Shown one piece after another: positions 10,871 through 51,712 of a stretch of 64,000 nucleotides of DNA. The translations under genes and the position numbers were made by a program. Positions within the stretch are counted from its first letter, which is position 1, and the number at the start of each line of letters is the position of its first letter. Under the pieces are notes generated by a model. That model searched no databases. It was not told the DNA's origin and saw nothing but the letters and a program-made list of their open reading frames with translations. Source of the DNA: a virus; IMG/VR virus record IMGVR_UViG_3300032116_000123, positions 1-64,000 of that record, one strand, 5' to 3'.

Positions 10871-12913
10871 TTAGCCCTTCTTTACATCAAATCGGTCTAG
10901 CATCATAACCTTATCCCACGCTGAAATAAAGTCTTTAATATATTTATCTTTTGCATCATCTGAGGCATATACTTCAGCAATTGCACGAAGTTCTGAATTA
11001 GATGCAATAATTAGATCCACTCTAGGAACCCCGTTTGCCTGATCAGCATTAATATAGGAAAGTAGATCAACTAAATAACTATTGTCTAGTTTTTCATTAC
11101 TTAGCATTCGCATTCCAGATAACAATAGAACCATTTCTACTGGTGTTAGACCTAATAGGTTAGCTTTTTCTACTAACAAAACCTCTTCTGGGGTTGGTAT
11201 ACCTTCCTGAACATAGTTACGGAAACCATCAAACTTTGGCTCAAGAACAGCAAATGATTCAATATCTGTTTGCTCTTGTGTAGCATCTCCACGACCAGCA
11301 ATAAATGGAACCTCTACTTGATCTCCAGTAATTTTTTCAATTGCTGCACATCCTGCTAAAACAATTAAATCTGCAAGTGATGCATTAAAACTATCCTTAA
11401 TAGATTCTAAGAAGCTAATAACATTTAATATTGATGGCTTATTATTAATTTCCCATGTATTTTGAGGCTGTAATCTAATACGGGCACCATTTGCGCCACC
11501 ACGCTTATCTGTTTTACGGAAAGTAGATGCAGAAGCCCAAGCGGTCTCTACAAAGTGTGACATAGGTATATCAGATGATTTAATCTTATTCTTAATAGCA
11601 TCTATTTCAATATTAATATTAGATGATTGAACTGGATCCTGCCAAATTAATTCTTCTGATGGTACATCTTTACCAAGATATCTTGCAATTGGGCCCATGT
11701 CTCTATGAGTTAACTTAAACCAAGCACGAGCAAAAACATTTGAGAAATAATCAAAATCTTCAAGGAATTTCTTTGAAATTTTTTCATATTCTGGATCGAA
11801 TCGCAAAGCAAGGTCTGCTGTTGTCATTACTGGGGCATGGAATTTACCTTCAATATGAGCATCTGGAACTAAATTAGCAGCAGATTCATCTGTAGGTATC
11901 CATTGTGTAGCTCCTGCAGGACTCTTTGTTTGTTTCCATTCATATTTAAATAGTAATTTAAGATATGAGTTATCCCATTTAGTAGGAGTTGCAGTCCATG
12001 CACCTTCAATACCACTTGTAATTGTGTCTTCTGCATTACCTTTTCCAAATGAGTTTTTCCATCCAAGACCCATATCTTCAATTGGGGCAGCTTCTGGATT
12101 TGGACCAACATGTGAAGGATCGCCAGCACCATGTGCTTTACCAAATGCATGTCCACCTGCAATAAGTGCAACTGTTTCCTCATCATTCATTGCCATACGA
12201 GCAAAGGTTTCACGAATATCTTTTGCAGAAAGAACTGGATCTGGATTTCCATTAGGGCCTTCTGGGTTAACATAAATTAATCCCATTTGAACTGCAGCTA
12301 ATGGATTTTCTAATTCACGATCTCCGCTATAACGATTGTCTGCAAGCCACTCTTTTTCTGATCCCCAATATGTATCGTCTGATTCCCAGACATCTTCACG
12401 GCCACCAGCAAAACCAAATGTTTTAAATCCCATATTTTCAAGAGCAACATTTCCTGCAAGAATCATAAGGTCTGCCCACGAAATTTTCTTTCCATATTTT
12501 TGTTTAATAGGCCATAGCAAACGACGGGCCTTATCTAAATTACCATTATCTGGCCAAGAGTTTTGTGGAGCAAATCTATGTAGACCTTCTCCAGCACCAC
12601 CACGACCATCTGAAATTCTATATGTACCTGCTGAATGCCATGCCATACGAATAAAGAATGGGCCATAGTTACCATAGTCTGCAGGCCACCATTCTTGCGA
12701 AGTAGTTAAAAGATAATCAATATCTTTTTTAATAGCATCAAGATCTAAACTTTCAAACTCTTTCGCATAATTAAAATCATCTGACATTGGGTCAGATTTT
12801 TCTGAATGCTTTCTTAATCCTGACAAATCTAATTGATTAGGCCACCAATCTGCATTTGATGTTTTTTGATTGTTTAATGCATTACCCGTAAATGGGCATT
12901 TTGCTTCGCTCAT
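10871..12913 (-). CDS. katG: Catalase-peroxidase KatG
   Basis: A 680-residue, apparently complete class I haem peroxidase that destroys hydrogen peroxide. All key residues are present at a constant offset of 15 from M. tuberculosis KatG: distal Arg89, Trp92, His93 ([11 protein letters not shown]); the Trp-Tyr-Met adduct Trp92-Tyr214-Met240 that gives catalase activity; proximal His255 ([11 protein letters not shown]); Trp306. The haem-free C-terminal domain is present ([11 protein letters not shown] to [12 protein letters not shown]), although the whole protein is about 50-60 residues shorter than usual. Own promoter at 12942-12971. Flanked by phage-type small genes, so it belongs to the phage. 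Likely protects the infected cell. Confidence 0.97.
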
Positions 12914-12941
12914 TATTTCTCTTTCTACTAGTAGATAATCT

Positions 12942-12971
12942 ATTATATAATATTTATACTTATTTAGTCAA
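12942..12971 (-). promoter_or_regulatory. katG promoter TTGACT-N18-TATAAT
   Basis: Minus strand: -35 TTGACT (12971-12966), 18 nt, -10 TATAAT (12947-12942). The -10 sits in the palindrome TATTATATAATA, an AT-rich dyad reminiscent of Fur/PerR-type sites; peroxide control is possible but not shown. Ribosome site AAAGAGAAATA. Confidence 0.65.
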
Positions 12972-13241: not shown

Positions 13242-13399
13242 TATTCATATTCCCTATATTTACAATAAGGACATTTATCTTGTTTTTTTTCTATTTTTTT
13301 AAAAGTAGTATCGTATCTATTTCCGCATGTATAACAAAGTTTATTCACTAAACCATTTAACTTATGTTCCCAGTATATTGGACTTCTAAATTTAATCAT
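13241..13399 (-). CDS. Zinc-ribbon protein (52 aa)
   Basis: MIKFRSPIYWEHKLNGLVNK then CYTC and CPYC, a CxxC-N18-CxxC ribbon. Overlaps the upstream gene by a few nt and is coupled to the downstream one by TAATG. Related in layout to its neighbours. Confidence 0.65.
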   Translation of the reverse strand: MIKFRSPIYWEHKLNGLVNKLCYTCGNRYDTTFKKIEKKQDKCPYCKYREYE

Positions 13400-13662
13400 C
13401 TTAATTTATCTCTAAATGGAGTTATTGGAATATTCCAGTCACCGTCATCGGACCATTTACCTGTTGAGTACCCAGCTTCAGATATTTCTTTATCTTTAAT
13501 CCTGATCCATTTACCATACTCATTTGGTTCTGCAGAGCCCACATACTCCTGACCAGTTTCCATATCAATTAATTTCCATTTAGCTGGTGCTTTTGTATGA
13601 ATAGTTAAATCTATAGCATTTTCATATGATTCTACTGTTTCTCCATTTAAAAGCTTTCTCAT
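13396..13662 (-). CDS. Conserved phage protein, unknown (88 aa)
   Basis: MRKLLNGETVESYENAIDLT, then WKLIDMETGQEYVGSAEPNEYGKW, a beta-rich small domain. The frame is open 36 nt upstream, but GGAGAAAAT directly before the ATG at 13662 and the ATGA overlap with the upstream gene decide the start. Function unknown. Confidence 0.65.
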   Translation of the reverse strand: MRKLLNGETVESYENAIDLTIHTKAPAKWKLIDMETGQEYVGSAEPNEYGKWIRIKDKEISEAGYSTGKWSDDGDWNIPITPFRDKLR

Positions 13663-13793
13663 ATATTTTCTCCATTGGCGTCTTTTATATATCCACAAGA
13701 ATCACAAATAAAATATTTTTTCATAGTAAATGGACAGGACGTATATCTAAACAAAGGATGTCCAAACAACTTGCATTTTATTTTATTTAACAT
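13659..13793 (-). CDS. Short zinc-binding protein (44 aa)
   Basis: MLNKIKCKLFGHPLFRYTSC then CDSCGY. Cys7/His12/Cys20 and the CxxC could bind one zinc. Stop overlaps the next start (ATGA). First of the chain of small zinc proteins leading to katG. Confidence 0.6.
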   Translation of the reverse strand: MLNKIKCKLFGHPLFRYTSCPFTMKKYFICDSCGYIKDANGENI

Positions 13794-13820: not shown

Positions 13821-14642
13821 TTAGTCAATTAATTTTTTATTAATTATTTTATGGGTATTATCGCAATATGGAAAATCTTTAGATTGTCCACAAATGCATT
13901 TCTTTTTACAAAAAGTTGTTTCTGGATGTACAGTATTTACCCAACTAATTATTTCCTCTTCTTCTTTCATAAAAGGATGTTTTTCTGGGTCAAACAGCTC
14001 AAAAGTTCCAGGCGCATGTTCTTTTTCCATTGCAAAATTAGAATAAGCATATCTAGTACCGCCAGTTATTTTTCTTACCCCATGTTCCCATGGATGACAT
14101 GCTCCATGAATTACTAAATCTCTTGGGTTTACTTCAACTTCTAAACAATCTTGATCATCTTGAGGTCGTTGTTTAATAGATCCATCTTTTTCAATATTAG
14201 GATAATAAATGTTTCCACCCTCGTAATCTCCAAAATATGTTACTATTCCATGACTTAATCTACAGCATGTACTCCATCTATCTAATTGTGTTAATTTATG
14301 CTCCATATTCATTCCTGGACTATCTGCATGTATGAACATGCCTTCATCTCCAGGTCTCATTACGTTAACAAAAAGTTGTGGATGAATATAGTGTTCTGGG
14401 TATAGAAGATAGGATATTTTGTCCCATATTGGCTTTAAATCAATTAGCAGTGGGCCAGTTTTATCTTTATACCAATCAATATGTTGATTTTTGTAAACAA
14501 AAGCTTCTTTTTTATCTTTAAATGTATTTTCATATTCTTTCATTAAAGAAGTTATTTTATTATTTTCTTCTTCTGAAATAAAATTTTTATATATCCATAT
14601 TTCTTCTGCAATTTGTTTTATATTATTGTTTTTTGTAAACAT
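13821..14642 (-). CDS. 2OG-Fe(II) oxygenase fused to a CDGSH-type [2Fe-2S] motif
   Basis: A 273-residue prolyl-4-hydroxylase-like protein. Iron ligands: H105-x-D107 (MFIHADSPG) and H187; the 2OG-binding Arg is R197 (GGTRYAYSNF). After about residue 240 comes CICGQSKDFPYCDNTH (C249, C251, C260, H264), matching the mitoNEET/CDGSH pattern C-x-C-x2-S-x3-P-x-C-D-x-x-H with Asn in place of Gly. The substrate is unknown; the cluster could supply electrons or sense redox. Paralogue of the next gene (two nt apart) and of the 39.2 kb gene, which both lack the Fe-S tail. Confidence 0.85.
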   Translation of the reverse strand: MFTKNNNIKQIAEEIWIYKNFISEEENNKITSLMKEYENTFKDKKEAFVYKNQHIDWYKDKTGPLLIDLKPIWDKISYLLYPEHYIHPQLFVNVMRPGDEGMFIHADSPGMNMEHKLTQLDRWSTCCRLSHGIVTYFGDYEGGNIYYPNIEKDGSIKQRPQDDQDCLEVEVNPRDLVIHGACHPWEHGVRKITGGTRYAYSNFAMEKEHAPGTFELFDPEKHPFMKEEEEIISWVNTVHPETTFCKKKCICGQSKDFPYCDNTHKIINKKLID

Positions 14643-14643
14643 A

Positions 14644-15369
14644 TTAAACCTTGCTATTTTGTATAGGATTCAACCAATTATCAAAAGACTCTTGTGACCT
14701 GTCTTTAATTTTTTCTAAATACTCTGGGCTTTTATATGAATAAAAAGTTCCTGGTACTTGTGCTATGTTTGTAGCAAAACAAGAAAAGGCATATCTAACA
14801 CCAGACAATACTGGTTTTGTTCCATGAAAATATGGAGCTTCTGATTTGTGTATAACTACGTCTCCAAGTCCAGGCTTGTATATTAATTCATCTGATTCAT
14901 CAAAATTATTTTCTGATTTTAAAATTCCATCTTTTGAAAAAGCAGGATAAAATATTTCTCCACCTTCAAAATTTGATATATATGCAACAACTCCAAAATC
15001 AATTATGCTACAGGTTGAATAACTATCTTCTTGAGTTAATTCATGAGCATTTTCTTTACCAGGGCTATCACAGTGAACAAACATTCCTTCTTGTCCTGGT
15101 CTTGAACATATGAATTGTGATTGTGGATTTATAACATACTCTGGATAAATAAGATCAGACACATGTTCCCACAAATCTAAGGCTTCTGGTACCGATGGAC
15201 TCATTTTATCGTCATACCAAGGAATATAGTTTTTATCTTCTTTAAATCTATTTTCTTCGAATTTATCTAATATTGTAGAAAATCTATTGCACATTTCTTC
15301 TGGAATATAGTTTTTAAAGACATATATTCCTTCAGCAATTTGGATGCAGTCTGGTCGATTATAAAACAT
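14644..15369 (-). CDS. 2OG-Fe(II) oxygenase (P4H-like), paralogue 2
   Basis: A 241-residue protein with H99-x-D101 (MFVHCDSPG), H182 (YFHGTKPV) and R192 (SGVRYAFS), a complete 2OG/Fe(II) site. The N-terminus IAEGIYVFKNYIPEE parallels IAEEIWIYKNFISEE of the adjacent protein. Adjacent and co-directional, so co-expressed. Phage P4H-like enzymes may hydroxylate proteins, nucleotides or small molecules; substrate not predictable here. Confidence 0.85.
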   Translation of the reverse strand: MFYNRPDCIQIAEGIYVFKNYIPEEMCNRFSTILDKFEENRFKEDKNYIPWYDDKMSPSVPEALDLWEHVSDLIYPEYVINPQSQFICSRPGQEGMFVHCDSPGKENAHELTQEDSYSTCSIIDFGVVAYISNFEGGEIFYPAFSKDGILKSENNFDESDELIYKPGLGDVVIHKSEAPYFHGTKPVLSGVRYAFSCFATNIAQVPGTFYSYKSPEYLEKIKDRSQESFDNWLNPIQNSKV

Positions 15370-18600: not shown

Positions 18601-18893
18601 TCTTTTATCTCTTCCATTAAAATATGTTTTGGTTTAGCTCCAATAATTTTTTTTACAGGTTTTCCGTATTGAAATAAGATTGTTGTTGGAATACTAATAA
18701 CTTCATATTCAGACGACTTTATTTTATTTTCATCAACATTTATTTTACCCACCCAAATTCCAGTATCATTAGAAACTTCATCTAATATTGGACTGAACAT
18801 TTTGCATGGTCTACACCATTCTGCCCAAAAATCAATTAAAATTATTTTATGACTATTAATTGTGTCTTCAAAATTAGAATCAGTTACTATCAC
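18591..18893 (-). CDS. trxA: Thioredoxin
   Basis: A 100-residue thioredoxin fold with WAEWCRPCKMF (redox Cys27 and Cys30; WCRPC rather than WCGPC) and the cis-Pro segment SIPTTILF. Phage thioredoxins keep reductases supplied, act as polymerase processivity factors (T7 uses the host one), or aid redox repair. No ribonucleotide reductase is visible in this window. Overlaps the upstream gene by 4 nt. Confidence 0.92.
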   Translation of the reverse strand: MIVTDSNFEDTINSHKIILIDFWAEWCRPCKMFSPILDEVSNDTGIWVGKINVDENKIKSSEYEVISIPTTILFQYGKPVKKIIGAKPKHILMEEIKEWL

Positions 18894-19384
18894 ACCTTCT
18901 CCTTATGAGTAGGCCAATAATATTGGCACCCTTCACAACAAGGCTTATTATACTTTGAGTTGACTGAATCTGCAAATTTTTCATAATATATAGGATCTTT
19001 TTTATATAGATTTGCTTGATGTGTAGTTGTAACCAGCTTAATAGTTGTAGGATTTATAGCCCATTTAGGAGTATCATCCCCCCAGATTAAAGATTTACGA
19101 GACCTTGAAAGTTTTTGAATATTTTGTTTATTTTTATCTACTTTAATTCCACGAGCATCTGCAAGACAAACTGCTGTCATAGCATACCTATAAAGTTCAG
19201 CTTCGGCTCCTTTCCACATAAGTACTGCAGGATGGTTACGCCAAGCATTAGATTTAGACATACCAGTTAATATATTTAGTATCTGATAAGATTCTAGTAT
19301 TTGTTTGTTAAGACGCTTATTGTCTAAAGCATCAAGACTGTCTCTTTTTGCTGCATATGGTAAAAATGTTTGCATGGTATCCAT
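18890..19384 (-). CDS. Pyrimidine dimer DNA glycosylase-like protein
   Basis: From the ATG at 19384: MDTMQTFLPYAAKRDSLDAL, then DNKRLNKQILESYQIL and WRNHPAVLMWKG, the pattern of the pyrimidine-dimer-glycosylase/MSMEG_6728-like family related to T4 DenV. 164 residues. A CCEGCQYYWP tail adds Cys of unknown role. The frame opens 39 nt further, but that part is a terminator hairpin, so the later start is right. A UV-repair role is inferred from the family. Confidence 0.7.
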   Translation of the reverse strand: MDTMQTFLPYAAKRDSLDALDNKRLNKQILESYQILNILTGMSKSNAWRNHPAVLMWKGAEAELYRYAMTAVCLADARGIKVDKNKQNIQKLSRSRKSLIWGDDTPKWAINPTTIKLVTTTHQANLYKKDPIYYEKFADSVNSKYNKPCCEGCQYYWPTHKEKV

Positions 19385-19399
19385 TCTACTAAATAATAA

Positions 19400-19423
19400 A
19401 TGGGCGGTCAATAGACCGCCCAT
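19400..19423 (-). terminator. Stem-loop terminator
   Basis: ATGGGCGGTC (19400-19409) and GACCGCCCAT (19414-19423) form a perfect 10-bp stem; on the minus strand it is followed by TTATTATTT. It lies between the 19429 stop and the 19384 start. Confidence 0.75.
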
Positions 19424-19428
19424 GATGT

Positions 19429-19635
19429 TTATTTATCTTTTAACTCTTCCGCTGCAGAGTTAAATTTATTCATAAAAGTTTGTATAACAAAAAATGTTGT
19501 TTCTCCTGCATTTTTTGCCATAGCCTGAGATGCCTCTTCGTTTTTATCAGATTCTGGTACTGAGTTATACCACTTTTGATATAGTTCTGTTGAAACTTCT
19601 TTTATTATTTCTTCAAGAACAGTTAATTTATCCAT
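19429..19635 (-). CDS. Small helical protein (68 aa)
   Basis: MDKLTVLEEIIKEVSTELYQ then a helical, acidic sequence ending EELKDK. Overlaps the subtilase stop by 8 nt, so it is translated after it; a partner or chaperone for that protease is possible, but nothing in the sequence proves it. Confidence 0.6.
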   Translation of the reverse strand: MDKLTVLEEIIKEVSTELYQKWYNSVPESDKNEEASQAMAKNAGETTFFVIQTFMNKFNSAAEELKDK

Positions 19636-20749
19636 TTATTTTTTTAGCCCATTCTGCTTTAATTGCAGCAAGTTTATCTGATGCTGCTTTAACTTCAGCC
19701 TGATATTGTGCTTCTGCTTGTGCTATTGCTTTATTTGCTTCTAGTATTAAATTAGCCTTAGCTTCAGCAGCCAATTGCTCTGGTGTTTTTGTAACAGGCG
19801 GAGTGGCTGTTGGAGTTTGTTTAGTAATTGCAATTTGAGAAGATGGAATTAATTTTCCATATTGCCCTCTTGCACCCTTAATAGGTTTTGACATTAGGTT
19901 AAGTGTATTAATAACTTCAGCATATGGAATTCCTGGTTTTGCTGATTTTATAGAAATCCATGTTGCAGCAACAACTTGTGTGGAAATAGAAGATCCTGCT
20001 GCATTTCTAATTTCTCCACCTGGAATTAATACTTGCATATTTCCATTAGCATAGTAATCTAATCTATCTTTATCAAAATTAGAATAATTATCAATTTGTT
20101 CATATTGATCTGCCATTCCAATAGAAATAGATTCGTTTATACATGCTGGCCACGATAGTCTAGAAAGATCTCTCATGTTTCCTGCTGCAAAAAATACAGG
20201 AACTTCTTTAGCAACAAGAGTAGATATTGTGCCACGCAACATTGGTGTTGCTGGACAATAGTCTGTTAATGTTGTAAGTATATTATGGTTTGCCTGAGAC
20301 ATAGCAACAGCCTGTATATTAAATCTTGATTGATTTTCTGATACCCATTTCAATGCTAATGAAACTCCAGTTTCACCAGTAGATTGTCTTAGTCCAGAAG
20401 AGGTATTTCCAATAATTCTAATAAATACAATTTTAATATTTGGATTAGTTCTAATAGCAACAGATGCCATCTGAGTTCCATGATCAAAACCATTTTTAGA
20501 AATTATGTTAAATGGAAGGGTAGCAGATCCTGTGCCCTCCATAAATTTTTGCCCATTTGGACAAGAGTTCCATTCTAAAACACAAACTTCATGAACAATC
20601 TTATCTTTAAAAATAGGTAAAGATGTGTCTATTGCTGTGTCAAGAATAGCTAAAGTGGGAGCCTGTTGATCCGCCTTGGCGCCCACAGTAATAAAGACAG
20701 TAGATAGTATTGATAGTATTGATATTGCGCTTATTAGTTTTTTATTCAT
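19628..20749 (-). CDS. Exported subtilisin-like (S8) serine protease
   Basis: A 373-residue protein: signal peptide (residues 1-26), then an S8 domain with catalytic Asp37 (AILDTAID), His90 (DHGTQMAS), oxyanion Asn191 (FFAAGN) and Ser254 (AAGSSISTQ). Residues 300-373 are an Ala/Lys/Glu-rich coiled coil, similar in flavour to the tails of the two other exported proteins here. It lacks a visible propeptide. It would act outside the membrane, on host envelope proteins or phage adhesins. Promoter at 20756-20785. Confidence 0.88.
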   Translation of the reverse strand: MNKKLISAISILSILSTVFITVGAKADQQAPTLAILDTAIDTSLPIFKDKIVHEVCVLEWNSCPNGQKFMEGTGSATLPFNIISKNGFDHGTQMASVAIRTNPNIKIVFIRIIGNTSSGLRQSTGETGVSLALKWVSENQSRFNIQAVAMSQANHNILTTLTDYCPATPMLRGTISTLVAKEVPVFFAAGNMRDLSRLSWPACINESISIGMADQYEQIDNYSNFDKDRLDYYANGNMQVLIPGGEIRNAAGSSISTQVVAATWISIKSAKPGIPYAEVINTLNLMSKPIKGARGQYGKLIPSSQIAITKQTPTATPPVTKTPEQLAAEAKANLILEANKAIAQAEAQYQAEVKAASDKLAAIKAEWAKKING

Positions 20750-22560: not shown

Positions 22561-22840
22561 ATCTTACGCCATACGACTCTAGCAATTTTTTTACTTTTGC
22601 TACATAGTCAATGACCATTTCTTTTTTAGTACCTGTAAATTGTATAAAGTTATCCTCATATAATCTTAATGCTAAAAACTCTGGATATTTAACAACATCC
22701 ATTTGTAAGTTGTTTACTGGTTTAGTTATTCCTCTTAAAGCTTTTGCCATTTCTGGTGTATAAAAAACTGGTTTGTTTGGTTCACCAGTCCATTGATTTA
22801 TTCCGTATTTAAAATGATCTTTATTTTTATCAATATACAT
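22520..22840 (-). CDS. Unknown alpha/beta protein (106 aa)
   Basis: MYIDKNKDHFKYGINQWTGE, later YPEFLALRLYEDNFIQFTG and a helical end. Appears to be a compact domain with a ferredoxin-like pattern. Starts 11 nt inside the WhiB gene. Function unknown. Confidence 0.6.
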   Translation of the reverse strand: MYIDKNKDHFKYGINQWTGEPNKPVFYTPEMAKALRGITKPVNNLQMDVVKYPEFLALRLYEDNFIQFTGTKKEMVIDYVAKVKKLLESYGVRCELEGVPSERILR

Positions 22841-23141
22841 TTTTAACTTTTAATCTTTTCCAAACTTCATTTGTTTTATGTAAATTTTTATTTTTATCTA
22901 TAGAGCCAGAACTTAAATATACTCCACCCCAAACTCCATACTCATTATTTTGAATTCCAGATTTATAACACATTGATATTACTGGGCATGCTAAGCAGGC
23001 TTCGTCAATATTTTTTGCAATTTTTTCATCATTTTCGTATTTATCATAAAAAAGATTAGTATCCATGCCTCTACAAATAGCAAGATGCCACCAATCTAAA
23101 TCTTCTTTATCTACTCCAAGATCATTTAAAATACTTGACAT
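22830..23141 (-). CDS. WhiB-family Fe-S transcription regulator
   Basis: A 103-residue protein with the four WhiB cysteines: C23, then CLACPVISMC (C49, C52, C58), and the G-V-W-G-G turn (residues 69-73) followed by a basic stretch (KNKNLHKTNEVWKRLKVKN). WhiB proteins hold a [4Fe-4S] cluster and bind region 4 of the principal sigma factor; they are essentially restricted to actinobacteria and their phages, the best host clue in this window. It lies in an operon whose promoter carries a large palindrome. Confidence 0.9.
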   Translation of the reverse strand: MSSILNDLGVDKEDLDWWHLAICRGMDTNLFYDKYENDEKIAKNIDEACLACPVISMCYKSGIQNNEYGVWGGVYLSSGSIDKNKNLHKTNEVWKRLKVKNVY

Positions 23142-30599: not shown

Positions 30600-30611
30600 T
30601 TTGCTCCTTTG

Positions 30612-30685
30612 TGCAACAGGTAGGACTTGAACCTACGATTGCCGAATTATGAGTTCGGGGCTTTAACCAACTAAGCTACTGTTGC
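30612..30685 (-). tRNA. tRNA-Met/Ile2 (CAT anticodon)
   Basis: Minus strand: acceptor GCAACAG/CTGTTGC, D-arm GCTTAGTTGGTTAAAGC, anticodon stem CCGAA/TTCGG with loop CTCATAA (anticodon CAT), T-arm GTAGG-TTCAAGT-CCTAC, discriminator A. CCA not encoded. Elongator Met versus lysidine-modified Ile cannot be told by eye; the promoter is at 30699-30727. Confidence 0.93.
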
Positions 30686-30698
30686 TCATAACAATATA

Positions 30699-30727
30699 AT
30701 TATATATATAGTATATTAATTAGTCAA
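30699..30727 (-). promoter_or_regulatory. tRNA-Met promoter TTGACT-N17-TATAAT
   Basis: Minus strand: TTGACT (30727-30722), 17 nt, TATAAT (30704-30699), about 14 nt before the tRNA 5' end. Its -35 overlaps the last codons of the upstream SDR gene. Confidence 0.8.
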
Positions 30728-31314
30728 TAGCCTAATTCAAAAATTTTACCATTATCATTTTTATTTACACTTAATATTATATTTACCATATCATTTCTTA
30801 TTTCTTCTGTTATGGTTGACGGAGATATTGAAATCATTGCTTGATTTTCTTTTACATGCAAAGATAAAGATTTAACTAAAGCTTGATTGCCAGCTTTTAC
30901 TGATGAATAATGTGCGTCTAAAATTGCTTTATTTGCAGCAACTGAGGATATGAAGATAATATGTCCATTTTCATTTAATGATTTTATGCAATTTATAATT
31001 AATAAGTTATAATTAAATAAATATGAGTCATAAAACAGTTTTAATTCTTTTATATTAATTTTTGTTATATTATCTGATATGGAATTTCCAGATAAAAAAA
31101 TTATTTTACTATAGTAATTTACTGGTAGGTCTCTAATAAAATTTAAAACAGATTCATAATCTTCAAAATCTAAATACTTCCAGTTATATTCTCCATAAAT
31201 TTTATTTTTTTGCCTGTAAGTTATTAAATCTATTATAAAATTTTCTTTTTCTAATGATTTTATTATTAATTTAGAAGATCTGGCTGTGCCACCTATGATT
31301 AAAACTTTATTCAT
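30724..31314 (-). CDS. Short-chain dehydrogenase-like protein
   Basis: A 196-residue Rossmann protein: nucleotide-binding KVLIIGGTARSSKLI at the N-terminus, FLSGNSISDN after the fourth strand, and YSSVKAGNQAL with the Tyr-x3-Lys pair of SDRs. Shorter than the usual 250 residues. Coupled to the carbamoyltransferase gene (one shared nt). Likely a nucleotide-sugar or small-molecule oxidoreductase in the glycan cluster. Confidence 0.75.
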   Translation of the reverse strand: MNKVLIIGGTARSSKLIIKSLEKENFIIDLITYRQKNKIYGEYNWKYLDFEDYESVLNFIRDLPVNYYSKIIFLSGNSISDNITKINIKELKLFYDSYLFNYNLLIINCIKSLNENGHIIFISSVAANKAILDAHYSSVKAGNQALVKSLSLHVKENQAMISISPSTITEEIRNDMVNIILSVNKNDNGKIFELGY

Positions 31315-32795
31315 TAAGTTAGTATATCACTTTTATAAATAGATTTCCATAAATTAATATCAGCAATATCATTTAATAAAGGCTGCCCTTTAATATTTAA
31401 ACTAGTATTTAATAATAATGGCACTCCTGTTTCTTGATAAAATTTATTTAATACTCTCCAAAGACCTCTATGCTGATTTCTATTTACTGTTTGTACTCTA
31501 GAAGTTCCATCTACATGAACCACAGACGGAACTATCTCTGGTTTTTTACATTTTACTGCATATTGCATGTAAGGTGATGTAAATTCCATTTCAAACCATT
31601 CTGATGCACATTCTTCCATTATAACTGGCGCAAATGGTCTAAACATTTCTCTTTGTTTAATTAAATTAACTTTATTTTTTATATCTGGGTCTCTTGGATC
31701 GGCTAATATACTTCTGTTTCCTAATGCTCTAGGTCCATACTCTGCACGTCCGTTTGCAACTGCAACAATTTTATTTTCTTTTAACTCAGAAATTATTTTA
31801 TCTACTGGATATTCTCCTTTAATATTATATCCAAGATAAGGATTGTTCCAATTTAAATGTTTTCCATATAATGCAGCAGCTGCGCCTAAAGATGATCCAG
31901 CATCTCCTGGGTTAGGCATTATCCAAATATCTTTAAATATATCCCATAAAAAAGTATTAGCAGAACAGTTTAAAGCACATCCGCCCATAAAAACTAGTTT
32001 ATTTTTACCAGTTATACCTTTTGCATACTTCATAAATTCTAAAAGTCTTAATGTATAAACCTTTTGGACTGCTGCTGCTAAATCAAAATTTCTTTGATCA
32101 AACCAAGACTTAGAGTTATTCTCCCATCCAGCCATACATGGAATACTTCCCCAATTAAAATCATATATTCCTTTATGAAAATTATATTTTTGTTTTGTAA
32201 TTGATGGAAAATAAGAATTTACTTGATCAAAATATCTATCTGGGTTTCCATAGCCAGCCATACCCATAAAAATATATTCCTCTTCATTTGGTTTTAATCC
32301 TACTAGTTGTGTAAAAGCAGAATAGAATAATCCAAAGCTAAATGGATAATTTTGTTTATGTTTTAATTTAACTTTGTCTCCTTCTCCCGTCCATATTGTA
32401 GAAGTATTCCATTCTCCTATAGAATCCAAAACAACTATAACTGCATCATCGAATTTACTTGTATAATATCCAGCACATGCATGCGAATAATGATGTTTGA
32501 AATATTTAACTGGTACGGTTTTATTAAATATATTTTTAATTTGATATTTTGGAACCCAATTACCATTTCCACCCTTTAATAATAATCTAGAAGCTTTTAA
32601 TAATGGATTTTCATAATATGCTATCTGATCTGGAAAACCGTATTGCAGGGCATCACTAATTAAATCATTATTGATATACCAATCATTTTTTTTCTTGCTA
32701 TATCTTTCAGCATGACCAGCAAATAAGATATTCCCATCTTCAATTAATGATAAAGATGCATCATGCGAAGTTTCATTAATTCCAAGTATTATCAA
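31314..32795 (-). CDS. NodU/CmcH-family O-carbamoyltransferase
   Basis: A 493-residue protein: N-terminal GINETSHDASLSLIEDGN, the HHYSHACAGYY and MGMAGYG motifs, MGGCALNCSANT, and GRAEYGPRALGNRSILADPR that marks the YrdC-like part of NodU/CmcH/TobZ enzymes. These transfer a carbamoyl group from carbamoyl-adenylate to a hydroxyl of a sugar or antibiotic. Somewhat shorter than the 550-600 usual. DNA carbamoylation has also been described for phage enzymes, so the substrate (glycan or modified base) is open; neighbours favour a glycan. Confidence 0.9.
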   Translation of the reverse strand: MIILGINETSHDASLSLIEDGNILFAGHAERYSKKKNDWYINNDLISDALQYGFPDQIAYYENPLLKASRLLLKGGNGNWVPKYQIKNIFNKTVPVKYFKHHYSHACAGYYTSKFDDAVIVVLDSIGEWNTSTIWTGEGDKVKLKHKQNYPFSFGLFYSAFTQLVGLKPNEEEYIFMGMAGYGNPDRYFDQVNSYFPSITKQKYNFHKGIYDFNWGSIPCMAGWENNSKSWFDQRNFDLAAAVQKVYTLRLLEFMKYAKGITGKNKLVFMGGCALNCSANTFLWDIFKDIWIMPNPGDAGSSLGAAAALYGKHLNWNNPYLGYNIKGEYPVDKIISELKENKIVAVANGRAEYGPRALGNRSILADPRDPDIKNKVNLIKQREMFRPFAPVIMEECASEWFEMEFTSPYMQYAVKCKKPEIVPSVVHVDGTSRVQTVNRNQHRGLWRVLNKFYQETGVPLLLNTSLNIKGQPLLNDIADINLWKSIYKSDILT

Positions 32796-37137: not shown

Positions 37138-37377
37138 TTAGATATCCTTTTTATTTAATTCATTTTCAACTATTTGCTGAACGTATTCAGAAAAATGTTT
37201 TCTTATACTTCCCGAAGGTCTACTTCCTGCAGCATTCCATATTCTAGCATATTCTACTATATTAGAAAATGTAGTAGGGCATACTGTTATTCCATTATAT
37301 TCTTTTAATGTTGTTGGAAGTGGAACATGCTTCCCACAGCATTTACATTCTTTTGCTTTTTCCTGGTATATATTCAT
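37138..37377 (-). CDS. Zinc-binding small protein beside terL (79 aa)
   Basis: MNIYQEKAKECKCCGKHVPL has CKCC; another Cys lies in TVCPTTFSNIVEYARIWN, and the C-terminus is helical. Starts inside the terminase stop (4-nt overlap). Unknown role; may be an HNH-remnant or packaging accessory, not shown. Confidence 0.6.
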   Translation of the reverse strand: MNIYQEKAKECKCCGKHVPLPTTLKEYNGITVCPTTFSNIVEYARIWNAAGSRPSGSIRKHFSEYVQQIVENELNKKDI

Positions 37378-39164
37378 ATTGTCATCATCCTGTCTATTGA
37401 CTCTTTTAAATCTTCTGGCATTCTTGGAGCTCTTATCATATTTTGTACAAAGACTTCTTCTGTATTATGATCTTCAAAACTCATTGATTCATATGTATGA
37501 ATTTTGATTTCTTGATTTGAATCAAACCTAGTTCTACTTATAGCATTATAAATTGATCCACATACGGCATCTGCTAAGTCTTTAGATCCTTTTCTTGGGT
37601 GATCAACTTTATCTCTCATAATTTTTAATTGAAGTAACTCATCTATTAATAATGGAATATGTGGCCCATGTAGTCTTTCTTCTAATACAACCATTGCCAT
37701 GTCGTCATAATGTTTTTTAGCAACAGATAAAATTTCAGTATTTATTCCATATTGTTTAAGTTGTTGCATCATATCATGAGAGTTCCATCGGTCAAATGTG
37801 CATATTTTTATTTTGAATCCCTTAGTTCTTAAAGCCAATATATAATCTTTAACTTCGGTAAAATCTACTGATTTATCTGCAGTAGGTGTCCAATATCTTA
37901 TTGCATCAACTTCAACTATTGGTGCTGGTTGTGAGTAAGTATCTGTTACTTTTACGTTTACCCATTTTTGAACATGAGCTAAAGACACAGCGCAGTGGTC
38001 ATGTTTTTGTGCTAAATCTACGTGTATAAAATAATCTTTGTCTGGATCTGGGGCGAACCAATTTTCGAATCTTCCAAATTGATCTATGGCTAATGCAGTA
38101 TTATTAAAAGCTAATTCAATTTTTTCTCTTGATTTAAAAAATGCATCTATTGCTTCTGGTGGCATGCAAGCAAAACGACTTAGTGCATCTGGCATGTTTT
38201 TATAAAATTCTATTTTAAAATCTTCAATTTTTTTAGTAGGATTTACGTCCCAGGTTGGTCTTTTAAGTGCATATACTTTAGGAATATTATATGAAATTAT
38301 ATGATCTTCTTCCCATTCAACCGTTATTTCATTACCCTGCGTTCCGTCTGGTAGGTCTTCATTCATTTTTAAAATTTTAGATTTAATAATAGTTTCTTTT
38401 TCCGCTACTACTGAGTCGTAAAATTTTTGGATTGGATCATTTTTAAAACGAGGAAATGAAAGTAAAATTACTTTACCGTAATCTGGAAAGCGTGATATTA
38501 CAGATCCACGATACATATCGTATATTGCATCTGCGGTTTTAGCTTGATCATGTCCAGTTGTATTTTCTGTGGCGAAGCCAGAAATTTCGTCTAGAATGAC
38601 AGCAATTACGTTATACCCTTCAAAAGCTTCTCTTTCTGAATGTCCTGAGTATACATTTACATTTTTATCAAATCTAATCTCAGAAGCTTTTGGATCATAT
38701 TTTCCTACAAACCATGGACTTCTATCTATACGTGTTTTAAATCCTTTAAAAAATACGTTGTTTGCTTGCTGTGCGTTAACAGCAATATTAATAATATCAA
38801 TTGTATCTCCAGGTGGTTTTCCGTAATATGTTGCTGGATCTTTTAAACATAATAATAAGTAAACCATATAGGAAACTGATATTGTAGATGTATAGTCTTT
38901 TCCTGAACCCTTACCCAATTGAGCAATGATTTCTGTACAAGTCTGTTTAAATCTCCGTTTGCCTTCCTCTTCTCCAAATAATTTAATTAAGGTAGACTCT
39001 TTATATATTTGAGAACCTTTTTCAATTAATGTATATTGATATTCTGAAAGTGGTGGCAATCCTAGATATTCTGGACTAGTAACAAATGTTTTTAGGTCTA
39101 CTGGGCGCTCTTCAAATTCTTCGCCATCTAAAATATCAATTAAATCAGAAAAATCAAAAGACAT
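37374..39164 (-). CDS. terL: Terminase large subunit
   Basis: A 596-residue packaging motor: Walker A-like LGKGSGKDYTS (84-94), Walker B NVIAVILDEISG near residue 190, coupling motif LLSFPRF, and the RNase-H-type nuclease domain from HVDLAQKHDHCAVSL with further acidic residues (CTFDRW). Between it and the terminase-small gene sits a P4H-like oxygenase gene, an unusual insertion. Start ATG shares its first base with the previous stop. Confidence 0.93.
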   Translation of the reverse strand: MSFDFSDLIDILDGEEFEERPVDLKTFVTSPEYLGLPPLSEYQYTLIEKGSQIYKESTLIKLFGEEEGKRRFKQTCTEIIAQLGKGSGKDYTSTISVSYMVYLLLCLKDPATYYGKPPGDTIDIINIAVNAQQANNVFFKGFKTRIDRSPWFVGKYDPKASEIRFDKNVNVYSGHSEREAFEGYNVIAVILDEISGFATENTTGHDQAKTADAIYDMYRGSVISRFPDYGKVILLSFPRFKNDPIQKFYDSVVAEKETIIKSKILKMNEDLPDGTQGNEITVEWEEDHIISYNIPKVYALKRPTWDVNPTKKIEDFKIEFYKNMPDALSRFACMPPEAIDAFFKSREKIELAFNNTALAIDQFGRFENWFAPDPDKDYFIHVDLAQKHDHCAVSLAHVQKWVNVKVTDTYSQPAPIVEVDAIRYWTPTADKSVDFTEVKDYILALRTKGFKIKICTFDRWNSHDMMQQLKQYGINTEILSVAKKHYDDMAMVVLEERLHGPHIPLLIDELLQLKIMRDKVDHPRKGSKDLADAVCGSIYNAISRTRFDSNQEIKIHTYESMSFEDHNTEEVFVQNMIRAPRMPEDLKESIDRMMTI

Positions 39165-48202: not shown

Positions 48203-48434
48203 TTGTATTTGATTCAACATTCTTATCAATATTTTGTTGTTCAATTTTATCCTTTAGTTCAAAAACAAACGAGGCTATATCCTCGTTATATTCAACACTT
48301 AAATTTTTATCTTCATTAGAGGCATTTAAAAATACATCTAGCGGAACAGATATCTTTTTTTGTGAATCTAAAATTGCTACTAAAATATTAGTAGCATTCA
48401 TTGCTTGATATATCTCTGCAGGAGTTTTGCTCAT
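48195..48434 (-). CDS. Small alpha/beta protein, paralogue b
   Basis: 79 residues: AMNATNILVAILDSQKKISV PLDVFLN, echoing paralogue a, then an acidic tail. Overlaps the DnaE gene by 4 nt, so translated with it. Function unknown. Confidence 0.6.
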   Translation of the reverse strand: MSKTPAEIYQAMNATNILVAILDSQKKISVPLDVFLNASNEDKNLSVEYNEDIASFVFELKDKIEQQNIDKNVESNTNE

Positions 48435-51400
48435 TTTACTTCCTTTATCATTAAGGTTCCATCATCTAATTTAGACAGAACAGGTTTACATTTCATTCCC
48501 TCACGCATTTTTGCTAATACTTGTGGATACATAGATGGGAATGCAATAGCTCTTGTTAATTCTTTATTTTTATTTGTCATAACAATATGTGCCATCGTTT
48601 TTCCAGCTTTTGTTTTATATGGATTAAAATTAATTACCATCATTTCATTATCTTCCATATCGTATTCTTTTCTATACAAATAATCTACAAATAAGTCTGA
48701 GCCGTTTGGATCGATATCGTTTATTTTAATATACCTAGCAATACGATTATCTCCTACAAGAATAAAGTACATCTGTCCAGTTTCAATTTGAGTTTGTTCA
48801 TGATGGAATAAACCAATTGATCCTGTTTCATCTACTAATTCTACTCTGGCCCAACCAGTACCACGTTTAATACTTTTTACCATCCCAAACATTGGAAAGG
48901 ATCCAAGATCATCAAAATCTTCTATTGGCCTTGCCTGTGCTTTAATTCGTGGAGGCAAATCTGTATTAAAAGTCGGTATTCCTAAATATTCGTAATAATT
49001 TTCTTTTTCTTTGTTATTACGCTGATTATCCGTAAAAGCAGCCCCACCAATGTTATTAAGAGCAGTAATAGCCCTGCTGTTAATACCGCTGCCTTTGGCA
49101 GAGGCTTTTTTAATGAAATCTGCATACGATTCATACGGTCTCTTTTCTATAATTTTATTTGCAATACTATCAGATATAAATTTAATTTCAGCTAATCCAA
49201 ATTGAATTGCATCATTTTTTAAAGAAAAATAAACTTCTGATTCATTGATGTGTGGCAATAATATTTTTAAGTTTAATCTTTTTGCTTCAATTAAATATTC
49301 TGTCCTAGCATCTTTATCATTTTCATTTTTAAGTACTGAAAACATGAACTCAAGAGGGTAATACTTTTTAAGCCAAGCAGTATAATAAGAAAGCATAGAA
49401 TAAGCAACGGCATGACTACGGTTAAAAGAATAACCTGCGTGAGCTTCGAAATCATGCCATAGGGATTCGGCTTTTTTCTTAGAAATGTGTTTTGAAGCCC
49501 CATCAATAAATTTATCCTTGAACTGGTCGAATTCTTTTGCATCCTTTTTCTTTCCTATGATCTTACGAACTTTATCAGCCTCAGACCAAGTCATCCCTCC
49601 TAAATAAACGCAAGCTTGCATAACTTGCTCTTGATATATGATAACACCATATGTATTTTCAGTAAAAGGTTTCATAATTTCATGAACGTATTCTACATCT
49701 TCAAATCCATGTTTTCTATTAATATATGAAGCACCTACCGTGTTCATGGCACCTGGACGCACTAAAGCATTTGAAGCAGCAAGATCTTCAAATTTATCTA
49801 CACCCATTTTAATTAATAAATTTGTATACGGAGTAGCTTCAGCTTGGAATACACCTTTTGTATATCCATCACTTAATACTCTATATACCTCTGCATCATC
49901 TAAAGATAAATCAGAAAGAATAATATCTTTATTGTATCTTTCTTTAATTGATTTTAATGTATCTGAGATAACTGATAATGTTTTTAAGCCTAATGCATCT
50001 AATTTAATTAAACCAATATCTGCTACGGTGTCCATATCATAAGCTACTACTGGTATTCTGCCAGAAACTTTATCTTGTGCGTCTTCTCTAGATTCAATTG
50101 GTGCATATTTTCTTAAATCATCTTTAGCAACAACAACTCCTGCAGCATGTACTCCAACTGATCTAATTTTTCCACGTAATCTTTCAGCAAGCCATACCAC
50201 TTCTGGATATTTAGATCTAAATTCTTTTGTGTTAGGAGATTCCATAAAATCTTCAAATGTATCAATTGACTTCATTGCACGATTTACGTCTTGTAGTGGA
50301 ACCATAAATACACGAGCAGCATCTCTAATAACGCCTTTATCTTTAAAATATGTGTATGTTGAAATAGATGCTACATGCTTAAATTTCTTTTTAAGATAAT
50401 CTTTAACCTCTTTGCGACGACGATCCTCAAAGTCTGTATCTATATCTGGGAAGTCATTACGCTCAGGATTAATAAATCGGAAAAACAATAAGTCATATTC
50501 AATTGGGTCTACATCTGTAATTCCTAGGGCATAACATACTAATGAACCAGCAGCAGAGCCACGACCAGGACCAACCATAATATTATTTTCTTTAGCCCAA
50601 TTAATCATGTCTGCTACTACTAGGAAATATGAGGCAAAACTTTTATCTTTAATAATTTCTAATTCTTCTATCAATCTTTGCTCATATATGTCATTTCCTA
50701 GCCATGATGAGGTCAGATGTAGGCTTTCTAAGCCTTTAAAGGCCATCTCAGCCAGTTTCTGATCTGCATCCGTCTTGGGTACTGGGAGGAGGTCTAGACC
50801 ACTATTAAAATCGTATTCTTCAATTTTATTAGCAATTTCTATTGTATTATCAAAAATATCTGATCGATTTATCCCAACTTTATTAAAATCTTCTTCTATT
50901 TCTTTTCTAGACTGAATCCAGAGATTTTGTTCTTGAAATGATATTTTCCTATTTGGGTATAAATAATTAAACCTATCCATCATATTACTTATATTTCTAG
51001 ACATCTCAAAATCTGATTCTTTATCTGATTTTGGAGATGTAGATAGAATTAACATAGCTTCAACTAAAACCTTGTCTTCTTTTTTAGCAAAATGAGAATC
51101 TGATGTTGCAACTGGTTTGATGTCTAGTTCTTTTGCAAACTCTAATAATTTATTATTTATTTCTTGTGGGTTGTGAGATTGAACCTCAATGTAAAAATCT
51201 TCGCCAAAAGTTTGTTTAAAATCTTTGAGTATAAGTTTTGCTTCTGAGAACTCCTGCCGTTCAATGCATTTACTAATAAGACCATTAAGACATCCACTAA
51301 GTACAATAATACCTTCCGCATATTCTTTTAATACCTCTCTATCAATACGTGGTTTATGATAAAATCCTTCGTTCCAAGCAATTTCTTGTAAAATATTTAT

Positions 51401-51712
51401 ATTTTCTAAACCTTTCATATTTTTGGCTAAAAGGATAATATGGTTATATGCCTGAATACTTTTATCTGTTTTAGATGATCTATCAAACCTATCTGTTGGT
51501 GATATGTATGCCTCTACACCTAATATTGGCTTAATTCCAATTTCTTTACATGCTAATTGCATTTCTCTATGAGAAGATAATGTTCCATGATCTGTAATAG
51601 CAATTGCTGTATGTCCATTATTTTTTGCAGCTTCTGCTAGAGCTTTGGGTGAATTTAATCCATCCATTAAGCTGTAATAGCTATGGACATGTAGGTGAGC
51701 AAAATTTGTCAT
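48431..51712 (-). CDS. dnaE: DNA polymerase III alpha (DnaE-type)
   Basis: A 1093-residue family C polymerase. PHP domain: HLHVHSYYSLMDGLNSPKAL; palm with GPGRGSAAGSLVCYALGITD and FPDIDTDFEDRR (catalytic Asp near 417-421); the HhH and OB regions follow. Phage family C polymerases are usually this length. Encodes its own replicase with helicase and primase nearby, so replication is probably host-independent for the catalytic core; no clamp loader is seen in this window. Confidence 0.93.
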   Translation of the reverse strand: MTNFAHLHVHSYYSLMDGLNSPKALAEAAKNNGHTAIAITDHGTLSSHREMQLACKEIGIKPILGVEAYISPTDRFDRSSKTDKSIQAYNHIILLAKNMKGLENINILQEIAWNEGFYHKPRIDREVLKEYAEGIIVLSGCLNGLISKCIERQEFSEAKLILKDFKQTFGEDFYIEVQSHNPQEINNKLLEFAKELDIKPVATSDSHFAKKEDKVLVEAMLILSTSPKSDKESDFEMSRNISNMMDRFNYLYPNRKISFQEQNLWIQSRKEIEEDFNKVGINRSDIFDNTIEIANKIEEYDFNSGLDLLPVPKTDADQKLAEMAFKGLESLHLTSSWLGNDIYEQRLIEELEIIKDKSFASYFLVVADMINWAKENNIMVGPGRGSAAGSLVCYALGITDVDPIEYDLLFFRFINPERNDFPDIDTDFEDRRRKEVKDYLKKKFKHVASISTYTYFKDKGVIRDAARVFMVPLQDVNRAMKSIDTFEDFMESPNTKEFRSKYPEVVWLAERLRGKIRSVGVHAAGVVVAKDDLRKYAPIESREDAQDKVSGRIPVVAYDMDTVADIGLIKLDALGLKTLSVISDTLKSIKERYNKDIILSDLSLDDAEVYRVLSDGYTKGVFQAEATPYTNLLIKMGVDKFEDLAASNALVRPGAMNTVGASYINRKHGFEDVEYVHEIMKPFTENTYGVIIYQEQVMQACVYLGGMTWSEADKVRKIIGKKKDAKEFDQFKDKFIDGASKHISKKKAESLWHDFEAHAGYSFNRSHAVAYSMLSYYTAWLKKYYPLEFMFSVLKNENDKDARTEYLIEAKRLNLKILLPHINESEVYFSLKNDAIQFGLAEIKFISDSIANKIIEKRPYESYADFIKKASAKGSGINSRAITALNNIGGAAFTDNQRNNKEKENYYEYLGIPTFNTDLPPRIKAQARPIEDFDDLGSFPMFGMVKSIKRGTGWARVELVDETGSIGLFHHEQTQIETGQMYFILVGDNRIARYIKINDIDPNGSDLFVDYLYRKEYDMEDNEMMVINFNPYKTKAGKTMAHIVMTNKNKELTRAIAFPSMYPQVLAKMREGMKCKPVLSKLDDGTLMIKEVK

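What the first reader, a model, noticed from the sequence alone, without database searches (positions are those of the whole stretch)
10871..12942. A phage encodes a complete, apparently active catalase-peroxidase (KatG)
All active-site residues line up with M. tuberculosis KatG at one constant offset of 15: Arg89, Trp92, His93, Tyr214, Met240 (the three-residue adduct needed for catalase activity), proximal His255 and Trp306. The gene has its own promoter and is embedded in phage-type small genes. A full haem catalase is a large auxiliary gene for a phage and would matter in hosts limited by peroxide. The about 55-residue shortening against usual KatG invites study of the C-terminal domain.
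Basis: partly seen in the sequence, partly recalled or inferred. Interest (0 to 1): 0.88.

Follow-up and report, generated by a model that had tools for sequence, protein, structure and literature searches.

The report
Peroxide-destroying enzyme gene in freshwater phages
A virus that probably infects common lake actinobacteria carries a well-preserved gene for an enzyme that destroys hydrogen peroxide; many related viruses carry it too, its non-catalytic half has been trimmed while the catalytic half stayed intact, and it may help sensitive host cells survive until new viruses are made.

Summary
The minus strand at 10871-12913 encodes a 680-aa catalase-peroxidase (KatG) with every tested catalytic residue. 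It is phage-borne: TerL, a DnaE-type polymerase and WhiB lie on the same contig and resemble those of large Streptomyces phages. A scan found 150 viral stretches encoding relatives; in the 80 kept, all 12 tested active-site positions are unchanged and median dN/dS is about 0.13. Forty representatives form one clade among (or beside) KatGs of freshwater acI-type actinobacteria. The C-terminal domain has lost an internal segment (57 to 24 residues in most viral copies), while the window keeps all 146 near-invariant sites of the catalytic half. Best explanation: an auxiliary enzyme that removes H2O2 in infected acI-like cells, which reportedly need added catalase and haem. Activity is unproven: a near cellular relative with the known residues was reported not to be a functional catalase. 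Viral katG is already in print as an auxiliary gene, so this is a new variant of a known kind. In passing: a covarying hairpin RNA without Rfam match precedes katG or a peroxiredoxin in related phages (42 of 97 copies examined), not in this window.

The parts
10871..12913 (-). katG coding sequence, 680 aa catalase-peroxidase
11654..12913 (-). N-terminal catalytic half (residues 1-420): keeps 146 of 146 sites that are >=98% conserved in 79 cellular KatGs (those without L083)
12635..12649 (-). distal haem pocket R89-M-A-W92-H93
12272..12274 (-). Y214 of the Trp-Tyr-Met adduct
12194..12196 (-). M240 of the adduct
12149..12151 (-). proximal haem ligand H255
11996..11998 (-). proximal W306
10874..11653 (-). 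C-terminal domain (residues 421-680): keeps 65 of 77 near-invariant sites
11024..11101 (-). shortened segment of the C-terminal domain (residues 605-630; 24 residues between the anchors against 57 in most cells)
12942..12971 (-). sigma-70-like promoter TTGACT-18-TATAAT upstream of katG
12925..12934 (.). palindrome CTACTAGTAG between promoter and start codon; CTACTAGTAGAAAG stands just upstream of katG in 16 of 80 related viral loci
13396..13698 (-). small ORF upstream of katG with homologues in 41 of 80 viral katG loci; of the 14 printed, 13 start within 1.5 kb upstream of katG
37374..39164 (-). terminase large subunit, 63% identical to Streptomyces phage TerL
48431..51712 (-). DnaE-type DNA polymerase, 56% identical to that of Streptomyces phages
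22830..23141 (-). WhiB-like regulator (actinobacteria and their phages)

Best explanation
The gene makes a catalase-peroxidase that a large tailed actinophage (longest related records about 110-120 kb) expresses from its own promoter in infected freshwater actinobacteria, most likely acI (Nanopelagicales) cells. The enzyme loads haem that the host has scavenged and removes H2O2 from light-exposed water and from metabolism, so that the cell and the replicating phage genome last until lysis. SHOWN: the gene, its residues, its phage context, one clade for the viral copies sampled, and purifying selection. INFERRED: host, expression, haem loading, catalase activity and benefit. The C-terminal domain, which carries no haem (recalled for KatG), has been pared down in the viral lineage without touching the near-invariant sites of the catalytic half.
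For: Full KatG with an intact active site; the AlphaFold2 model matches B. pseudomallei and M. tuberculosis KatG (TM about 0.86 by query length). Twelve tested active-site positions unchanged in 80 of 80 viral relatives. Median dN/dS 0.126, catalytic half 0.075, C-domain 0.188 (2789 non-independent pairs among 81 sequences). Phage context: TerL, DnaE polymerase, WhiB in 13 of 14 katG records and 2 of 3 related records without katG, terL with katG in 22 of 32 records; GC3 of katG (0.186) is close to that of terL and polymerase (0.173, 0.195). Origin: 40 viral representatives form one clade (SH-aLRT 99) among KatGs of the family of IMCC25003. Need: monofunctional catalase in 2 of 151 genomes of that family, katG above cut-off in 82 of 201; acI strains were cultured by adding catalase (passages). 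Other viral contigs carry AhpC-type peroxiredoxins.
Against: No activity, expression or host has been measured. The KatG of IMCC25003 was reported not to be a functional catalase although the known active-site residues of its group are present. Ferrochelatase was found in only 8 of 151 genomes of that family, so haem may be limiting. Only 3 of 25 TerL-related records searched (of 80 loci) hold katG (many are fragments, but those of 107, 105 and 85 kb also lack it), so the gene is optional. The AU test does not reject acI-type KatGs as one clade apart from the viral ones (p 0.231): nested or sister is open.
Confidence: 0.66

Rival explanations
1. The protein is a weak catalase, like the KatG of IMCC25003, and works mainly as a peroxidase or on other substrates.
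For: A near cellular relative was reported not to be a functional catalase despite the known residues. The C-terminal domain has lost a segment, and the window has changed 12 of 77 near-invariant sites there. All 81 viral sequences carry N at residue 82, where 96% of the 79 other cellular sequences have H.
Against: The Trp-Tyr-Met adduct and the Arg switch needed for catalase turnover (roles recalled) are kept in 80 of 80 viral relatives; the catalytic half evolves slowly.
Confidence: 0.2
2. The protein serves another end, such as binding scarce haem in a haem-auxotrophic host or acting as a virion-associated enzyme.
For: Hosts of this kind are reported haem auxotrophs, and ferrochelatase was found in only 8 of 151 genomes of the family.
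Against: A haem sink would not need every catalytic residue; other phages hold peroxiredoxins, which use no haem (recalled), behind the same RNA element.
Confidence: 0.08
3. A passenger gene in decay, kept by chance.
For: Loss of varying extent in the C-terminal domain.
Against: dN/dS about 0.1 across the viral set, maximum 0.254 in 2789 pairs; catalytic half intact.
Confidence: 0.04
4. A chimeric assembly of phage and bacterial DNA.
For: Assembly from a metagenome; the seven records of the phage collection that match KatG look like bacterial pieces (inference).
Against: katG and terL share a contig in 22 of 32 viral records; the codon signature is that of the phage; no cellular KatG found is closer than about 67%.
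Confidence: 0.01

Closest known systems
Bacterial catalase-peroxidase KatG (B. pseudomallei 5l05, M. tuberculosis 2cca)
   Same: Two-domain fold, haem pocket, Trp-Tyr-Met adduct, Arg switch
   Different: About 50 residues shorter; one C-terminal segment cut from 57 to 24 residues and a loop from 22 to 14; phage-borne
acI actinobacterial KatG ('group A' of PMC7527133; IMCC25003, record L083)
   Same: Nearest cellular relatives found, about 62-67% identical, in the tree around the viral clade
   Different: Mostly full length; two genomes of the family (G164, G050) show a separate shortening to 25 residues
Viral katG reported as an auxiliary metabolic gene (Zhou et al., Lake Mendota, cited in review PMC12713726; estuary viruses, PMC13390420)
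   Same: katG on viral contigs in fresh and low-salinity water (passages)
   Different: The passages read mention no clade, actinophage assignment, active-site test or C-terminal loss; Zhou et al. itself was not read
Large Streptomyces phages (Gilson, Samisti12, BillNye; about 127-134 kb)
   Same: TerL and DnaE polymerase relatives
   Different: None is among the seven records of the phage collection that match KatG; about 33% GC here
Cultured acI phages E7 and F5 (PMC10202952)
   Same: Actinophages of fresh water with WhiB (text part 1 of 2 read)
   Different: 39 kb, about 45% GC, no katG mentioned in the part read

Membership tests
Catalase-peroxidase KatG (TIGR00198) | Score above the curated family cut-off | tested here: met
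   912 bits for the main stretch, 967.1 with its neighbour in the frame, cut-off 770.25
Catalase-peroxidase KatG (TIGR00198) | Distal Arg-Trp-His, Tyr and Met of the adduct, proximal His and Trp, Arg switch | tested here: met
   All present; unchanged in 80 of 80 viral relatives
Catalase-peroxidase KatG (TIGR00198) | Two peroxidase-like domains, the C-terminal one without haem | tested here: met
   Two Pfam peroxidase stretches; model matches KatG structures over about 710 columns. The C-terminal domain is shortened; absence of haem there was not tested
Catalase-peroxidase KatG (TIGR00198) | Catalase and peroxidase activity with haem b | not testable with these tools
   No biochemical data; IMCC25003 KatG reported not to be a functional catalase
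Phage auxiliary metabolic gene | Lies in a phage genome beside hallmark genes | tested here: met
   TerL about 25 kb away, polymerase, WhiB; 22 of 32 katG records hold TerL
Phage auxiliary metabolic gene | Acquired from cells and kept by selection | tested here: met
   One viral clade among or beside acI-type KatGs (AU p 0.231); dN/dS 0.126
Phage auxiliary metabolic gene | Benefit to the infection | not testable with these tools
   Needs a phage-host system
Large Streptomyces-type actinophages | Related TerL and polymerase, WhiB | tested here: met
   63% and 56% identity; WhiB found
Large Streptomyces-type actinophages | Genome-wide relatedness at family rank | not tested
   No whole-genome comparison was made

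The most novel reading that the evidence does not exclude
Freshwater actinophages hold a peroxide-defence slot beside their tRNA arrays that is filled with either a trimmed viral KatG or an AhpC-type peroxiredoxin, and in part of them this slot is controlled by a new structured leader RNA (conserved GUCGGGAAAC loop and GUUGCAACAC bulge) that senses peroxide, haem or another stress signal. The window's phage would be a branch that keeps the enzyme but uses a plain promoter instead of the RNA.
Probability: 0.15. Interest if true: 0.85.

Novelty: new variant of a known kind. Interest (0 to 1): 0.62.

Why it matters
acI actinobacteria are described as abundant or predominant in fresh waters, as haem auxotrophs, and as cultured with added catalase (passages). 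A clade of phages, probably theirs, carrying a conserved haem catalase-peroxidase raises a testable question: do viruses supply peroxide defence that streamlined hosts have given up, and where does the haem come from? The loss in the C-terminal domain, seen separately in two genomes of the acI family, is also a natural experiment on what that domain does.

Tried and rejected
Chimera or contamination: rejected. L003 is identical to the window over 22,040 bases and may be the same virus, so it was not used as independent support; L004 and L012 differ by about 8% and 14% in the katG stretch.

Neutral passenger: rejected.

Records of the phage collection with KatG: 7, with Salmonella, Acinetobacter and Escherichia labels, three without annotation; taken as bacterial pieces (inference; they were not opened).

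KatG family in PHROGs: none. KatG-like fold in BFVD: none at E <= 0.001.

L193, L213 and L214 were suspected phage contigs in bacterial bins; their other genes look cellular (by eye) and of the window's ORFs only katG and frames overlapping it matched, so they give no host link.

Does a leader RNA control this window's katG? Rejected: no model match at E <= 1 in the window or in the remaining 11 kb of the record. Is that RNA a known family? No match but tRNA at gathering in 8 loci, 7 of them with the element, nor a convincing one with a lax threshold in 2. Is it a katG-only or a constant leader? No: directly upstream in 21 of 80 katG loci and 8 of 80 peroxiredoxin loci (4 more with a variant further upstream); of 97 elements examined, katG follows in 22, peroxiredoxin in 20, neither in 55. 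On the KatG tree its presence changes at least 6 times. It was not found in 101 genomes of the acI family (no positive control) nor in 52 other loci.

Rows left out: trees used viral rows of at least 640 aa and under 93% identity to one kept (40 of 81); the first tree used 79 of 80 cellular rows; the second used 22 acI group A rows, 6 of 29 acI group B rows and 16 of the 79 other cellular rows; both left out the alignment columns of the two shortened segments. One search covered 32 and searched 25 of 80 loci each, chosen for long records. The RNA alignment held 38 of 39 distinct elements. Random-position control for promoters: an 11-of-12 match is held by 13 of 78 viral katG leaders, against 4 of 400 random 100-mers at 11 and 2 at 12; most viral katG leaders do not have it.

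The AlphaFold2 model is mediocre (mean pLDDT 71.7; 153 residues under 50), so no structural detail is claimed from it.

Read: passages of PMC13390420, PMC12713726, PMC8353197, PMC7527133 and PMC12381374; PMC10202952 part 1 of 2. Others were seen in listings only; Kim et al. 2019 and 2021 were not held.

Full report
WHAT IS THERE. The minus strand of the window at 10871-12913 holds one open frame of 680 aa, ATG to stop, without interruption. It scores 967.1 bits in all against TIGR00198, cut-off 770.25, and hits the Pfam peroxidase model in two stretches. M. tuberculosis and B. pseudomallei residue numbers and roles are recalled.

THE SHORTENING. It is not a missing end. Between residues 605 and 630, 63 of 80 viral relatives have 24 residues, 9 have 39, 3 have 53, two have 29, and one each has 23, 34 or 54 (two of the 80 copies are cut by a contig end); 72 of 80 cellular KatGs have 57. 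A second loop (505-520) has 14 residues in the window against a cellular median of 22, but acI group B KatGs have 14 as well. In the tree the viruses with 53-54 residues (L071, L077, L079) branch first, so the loss happened inside the viral lineage. It is not a clean staircase: forms with 39 and 24 residues are mixed near the base, and 29 and 34 occur in later branches, so loss came more than once or was partly reversed. With a single threshold (under 46 residues) two changes suffice: one in the viruses, one in two genomes of the acI family, L193 and L211, that have 25 residues. Of 223 sites at least 98% conserved in 79 other cellular KatGs, the window keeps 146 of 146 in residues 1-420 and 65 of 77 in 421-680. 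Viral signatures include N82 (H in cells), F387 (P, though only 45% P in acI group A) and V592 (P).

IT IS A PHAGE GENE. The record is a 75,086-base virus record. TerL (37374-39164) is 63% identical to Streptomyces phage TerL, the DnaE polymerase (48431-51712) 56% to the same kind of phage, and WhiB was found here (22830-23141), in 13 of 14 katG records in all and in 2 of 3 related records without katG. Of 32 katG-bearing viral records searched, 22 hold a TerL relative, in two sets: 14 at 75-100% identity and 8 at 54-56%. On the KatG tree the TerL type changes at least 3 times among 13 labelled rows, so the gene has probably moved between phage lineages. Conversely only 3 of 25 TerL-related records searched hold katG. 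katG has nearly the third-position GC of the phage (0.186; terL 0.173; polymerase 0.195).

RELATIVES AND ORIGIN. In a tree of 84 rows all 40 viral representatives form one clade (SH-aLRT 99) that falls among the KatGs of the family of IMCC25003, nearest to L204, from a genome of that family whose contig is 37% GC and looks cellular. The nesting is not secure: holding the acI group A rows together gives p-AU 0.231. One Bacteroidota-labelled row (L085) also falls near the viral clade, on a long branch.

SELECTION. Among 81 viral coding sequences, 2789 pairs with dS 0.3-1.5 have a median dN/dS of 0.126 (maximum 0.254), 0.075 in the N-terminal and 0.188 in the C-terminal part. The pairs are not independent, but the sign is clear.

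HOST AND NEED. The host is inferred, from WhiB, from the actinophage TerL and polymerase, and from the origin of katG. In the family of IMCC25003, katG passes the cut-off in 82 of 201 genomes (102 of 201 with any match), monofunctional catalase in 2 of 151 and ferrochelatase in 8 of 151; completeness is not given, so these are lower bounds. Papers (passages) say that acI strains were maintained with added catalase and that the IMCC25003 KatG was assayed as not a functional catalase, elsewhere as low-activity, and that these bacteria are haem auxotrophs. A phage haem enzyme would thus depend on scavenged haem. This is the weakest link of the story and the most interesting one.

CONTROL REGION. 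Upstream of katG lies TTGACT-18-TATAAT (12971-12942). The same strong form occurs once more in the window, at 30727-30699, just upstream of tRNA-Met. The palindrome CTACTAGTAG follows; CTACTAGTAGAAAG stands just upstream of katG in 16 of 80 related viral loci. In other phages katG often stands right behind tRNA genes: a tRNA lies within 500 bases upstream on the same strand in 56 of 74 loci, against 17 of 667 other ORFs of the same loci. The window's own katG has no tRNA beside it.

A NEW RNA IN PASSING. Of the 80 viral katG loci, 21 have a 70-base element directly upstream of katG (E <= 1.5e-18), as have 8 of 80 phage peroxiredoxin loci. A pattern scan of viral contigs gave 98 stretches. In 38 distinct sequences, 13 of 17 predicted pairs show changes on both sides that keep the pair. 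Among 97 elements examined, 95 have an exact TATAAT box upstream; katG follows in 22, an AhpC/TSA peroxiredoxin in 20 and neither in 55. Longer variants sit inside tRNA arrays, flush with the end of tRNA-Asp. No Rfam family other than tRNA matched. Whether it is a sensor, a stabiliser or a tRNA-array RNA is open. The window lacks it.

LITERATURE. Viral katG is in print: a review lists it from the Lake Mendota series as 'not validated', and an estuary study finds viral katG most abundant at low salinity. In the listings and passages of the ten paper searches I saw no account of a phage KatG clade, of its C-terminal loss or of the RNA; only aimed at RNA, none at the C-terminal loss, and preprints and most subscription journals are not in that library.

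VERDICT. A genuine, conserved phage KatG of a probable acI actinophage lineage; function as peroxide defence likely but untested; a new variant of a known kind.

Noticed in passing
L304:4820-4889, L308:7384-7453, L303:4345-4414, L042:7766-7843 and others (not in the window): A covarying 70-base hairpin RNA with conserved GUCGGGAAAC and GUUGCAACAC, without Rfam match, follows a TATAAT box; katG follows in 22 and a peroxiredoxin gene in 20 of 97 copies examined; longer variants sit flush with tRNA-Asp inside tRNA arrays.
   Followed up: partly
L398-L477: AhpC/TSA peroxiredoxin genes are common on viral contigs (553 stretches confirmed by tblastn, 80 kept); in the 14 katG records searched none passed the Pfam cut-off, two had weaker matches.
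   Followed up: partly
L193:8255-10339 (G164) and L211 / L214:8543-10627 (G050): Two genomes of the acI family have a KatG with the same C-terminal segment shortened to 25 residues, apart from the viral clade in the tree.
   Followed up: partly
viral katG loci L003-L082: katG lies beside tRNA genes in most related phage loci (tRNA within 500 bases upstream in 56 of 74, against 17 of 667 control ORFs), which suggests a cargo hot spot.
   Followed up: partly
window 30699-30727: The only other TTGACT-16/18-TATAAT match of the window stands directly upstream of tRNA-Met (30611-30685, minus).
   Followed up: no
window 13821-15369: Two neighbouring ORFs that match largely the same relatives in other phages; the first has a sub-threshold CDGSH iron-sulphur domain (27.8 bits, cut-off 29.5).
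   Followed up: no
window 18890-19423, 19628-20749, 31314-32795: Pyrimidine-dimer glycosylase, subtilase-type protease and Nol-like carbamoyltransferase genes.
   Followed up: no
L071 and L072, upstream of katG: A different leader with a GCCAGC...GCTGGC inverted repeat stands before katG in these early-branching viruses.
   Followed up: no
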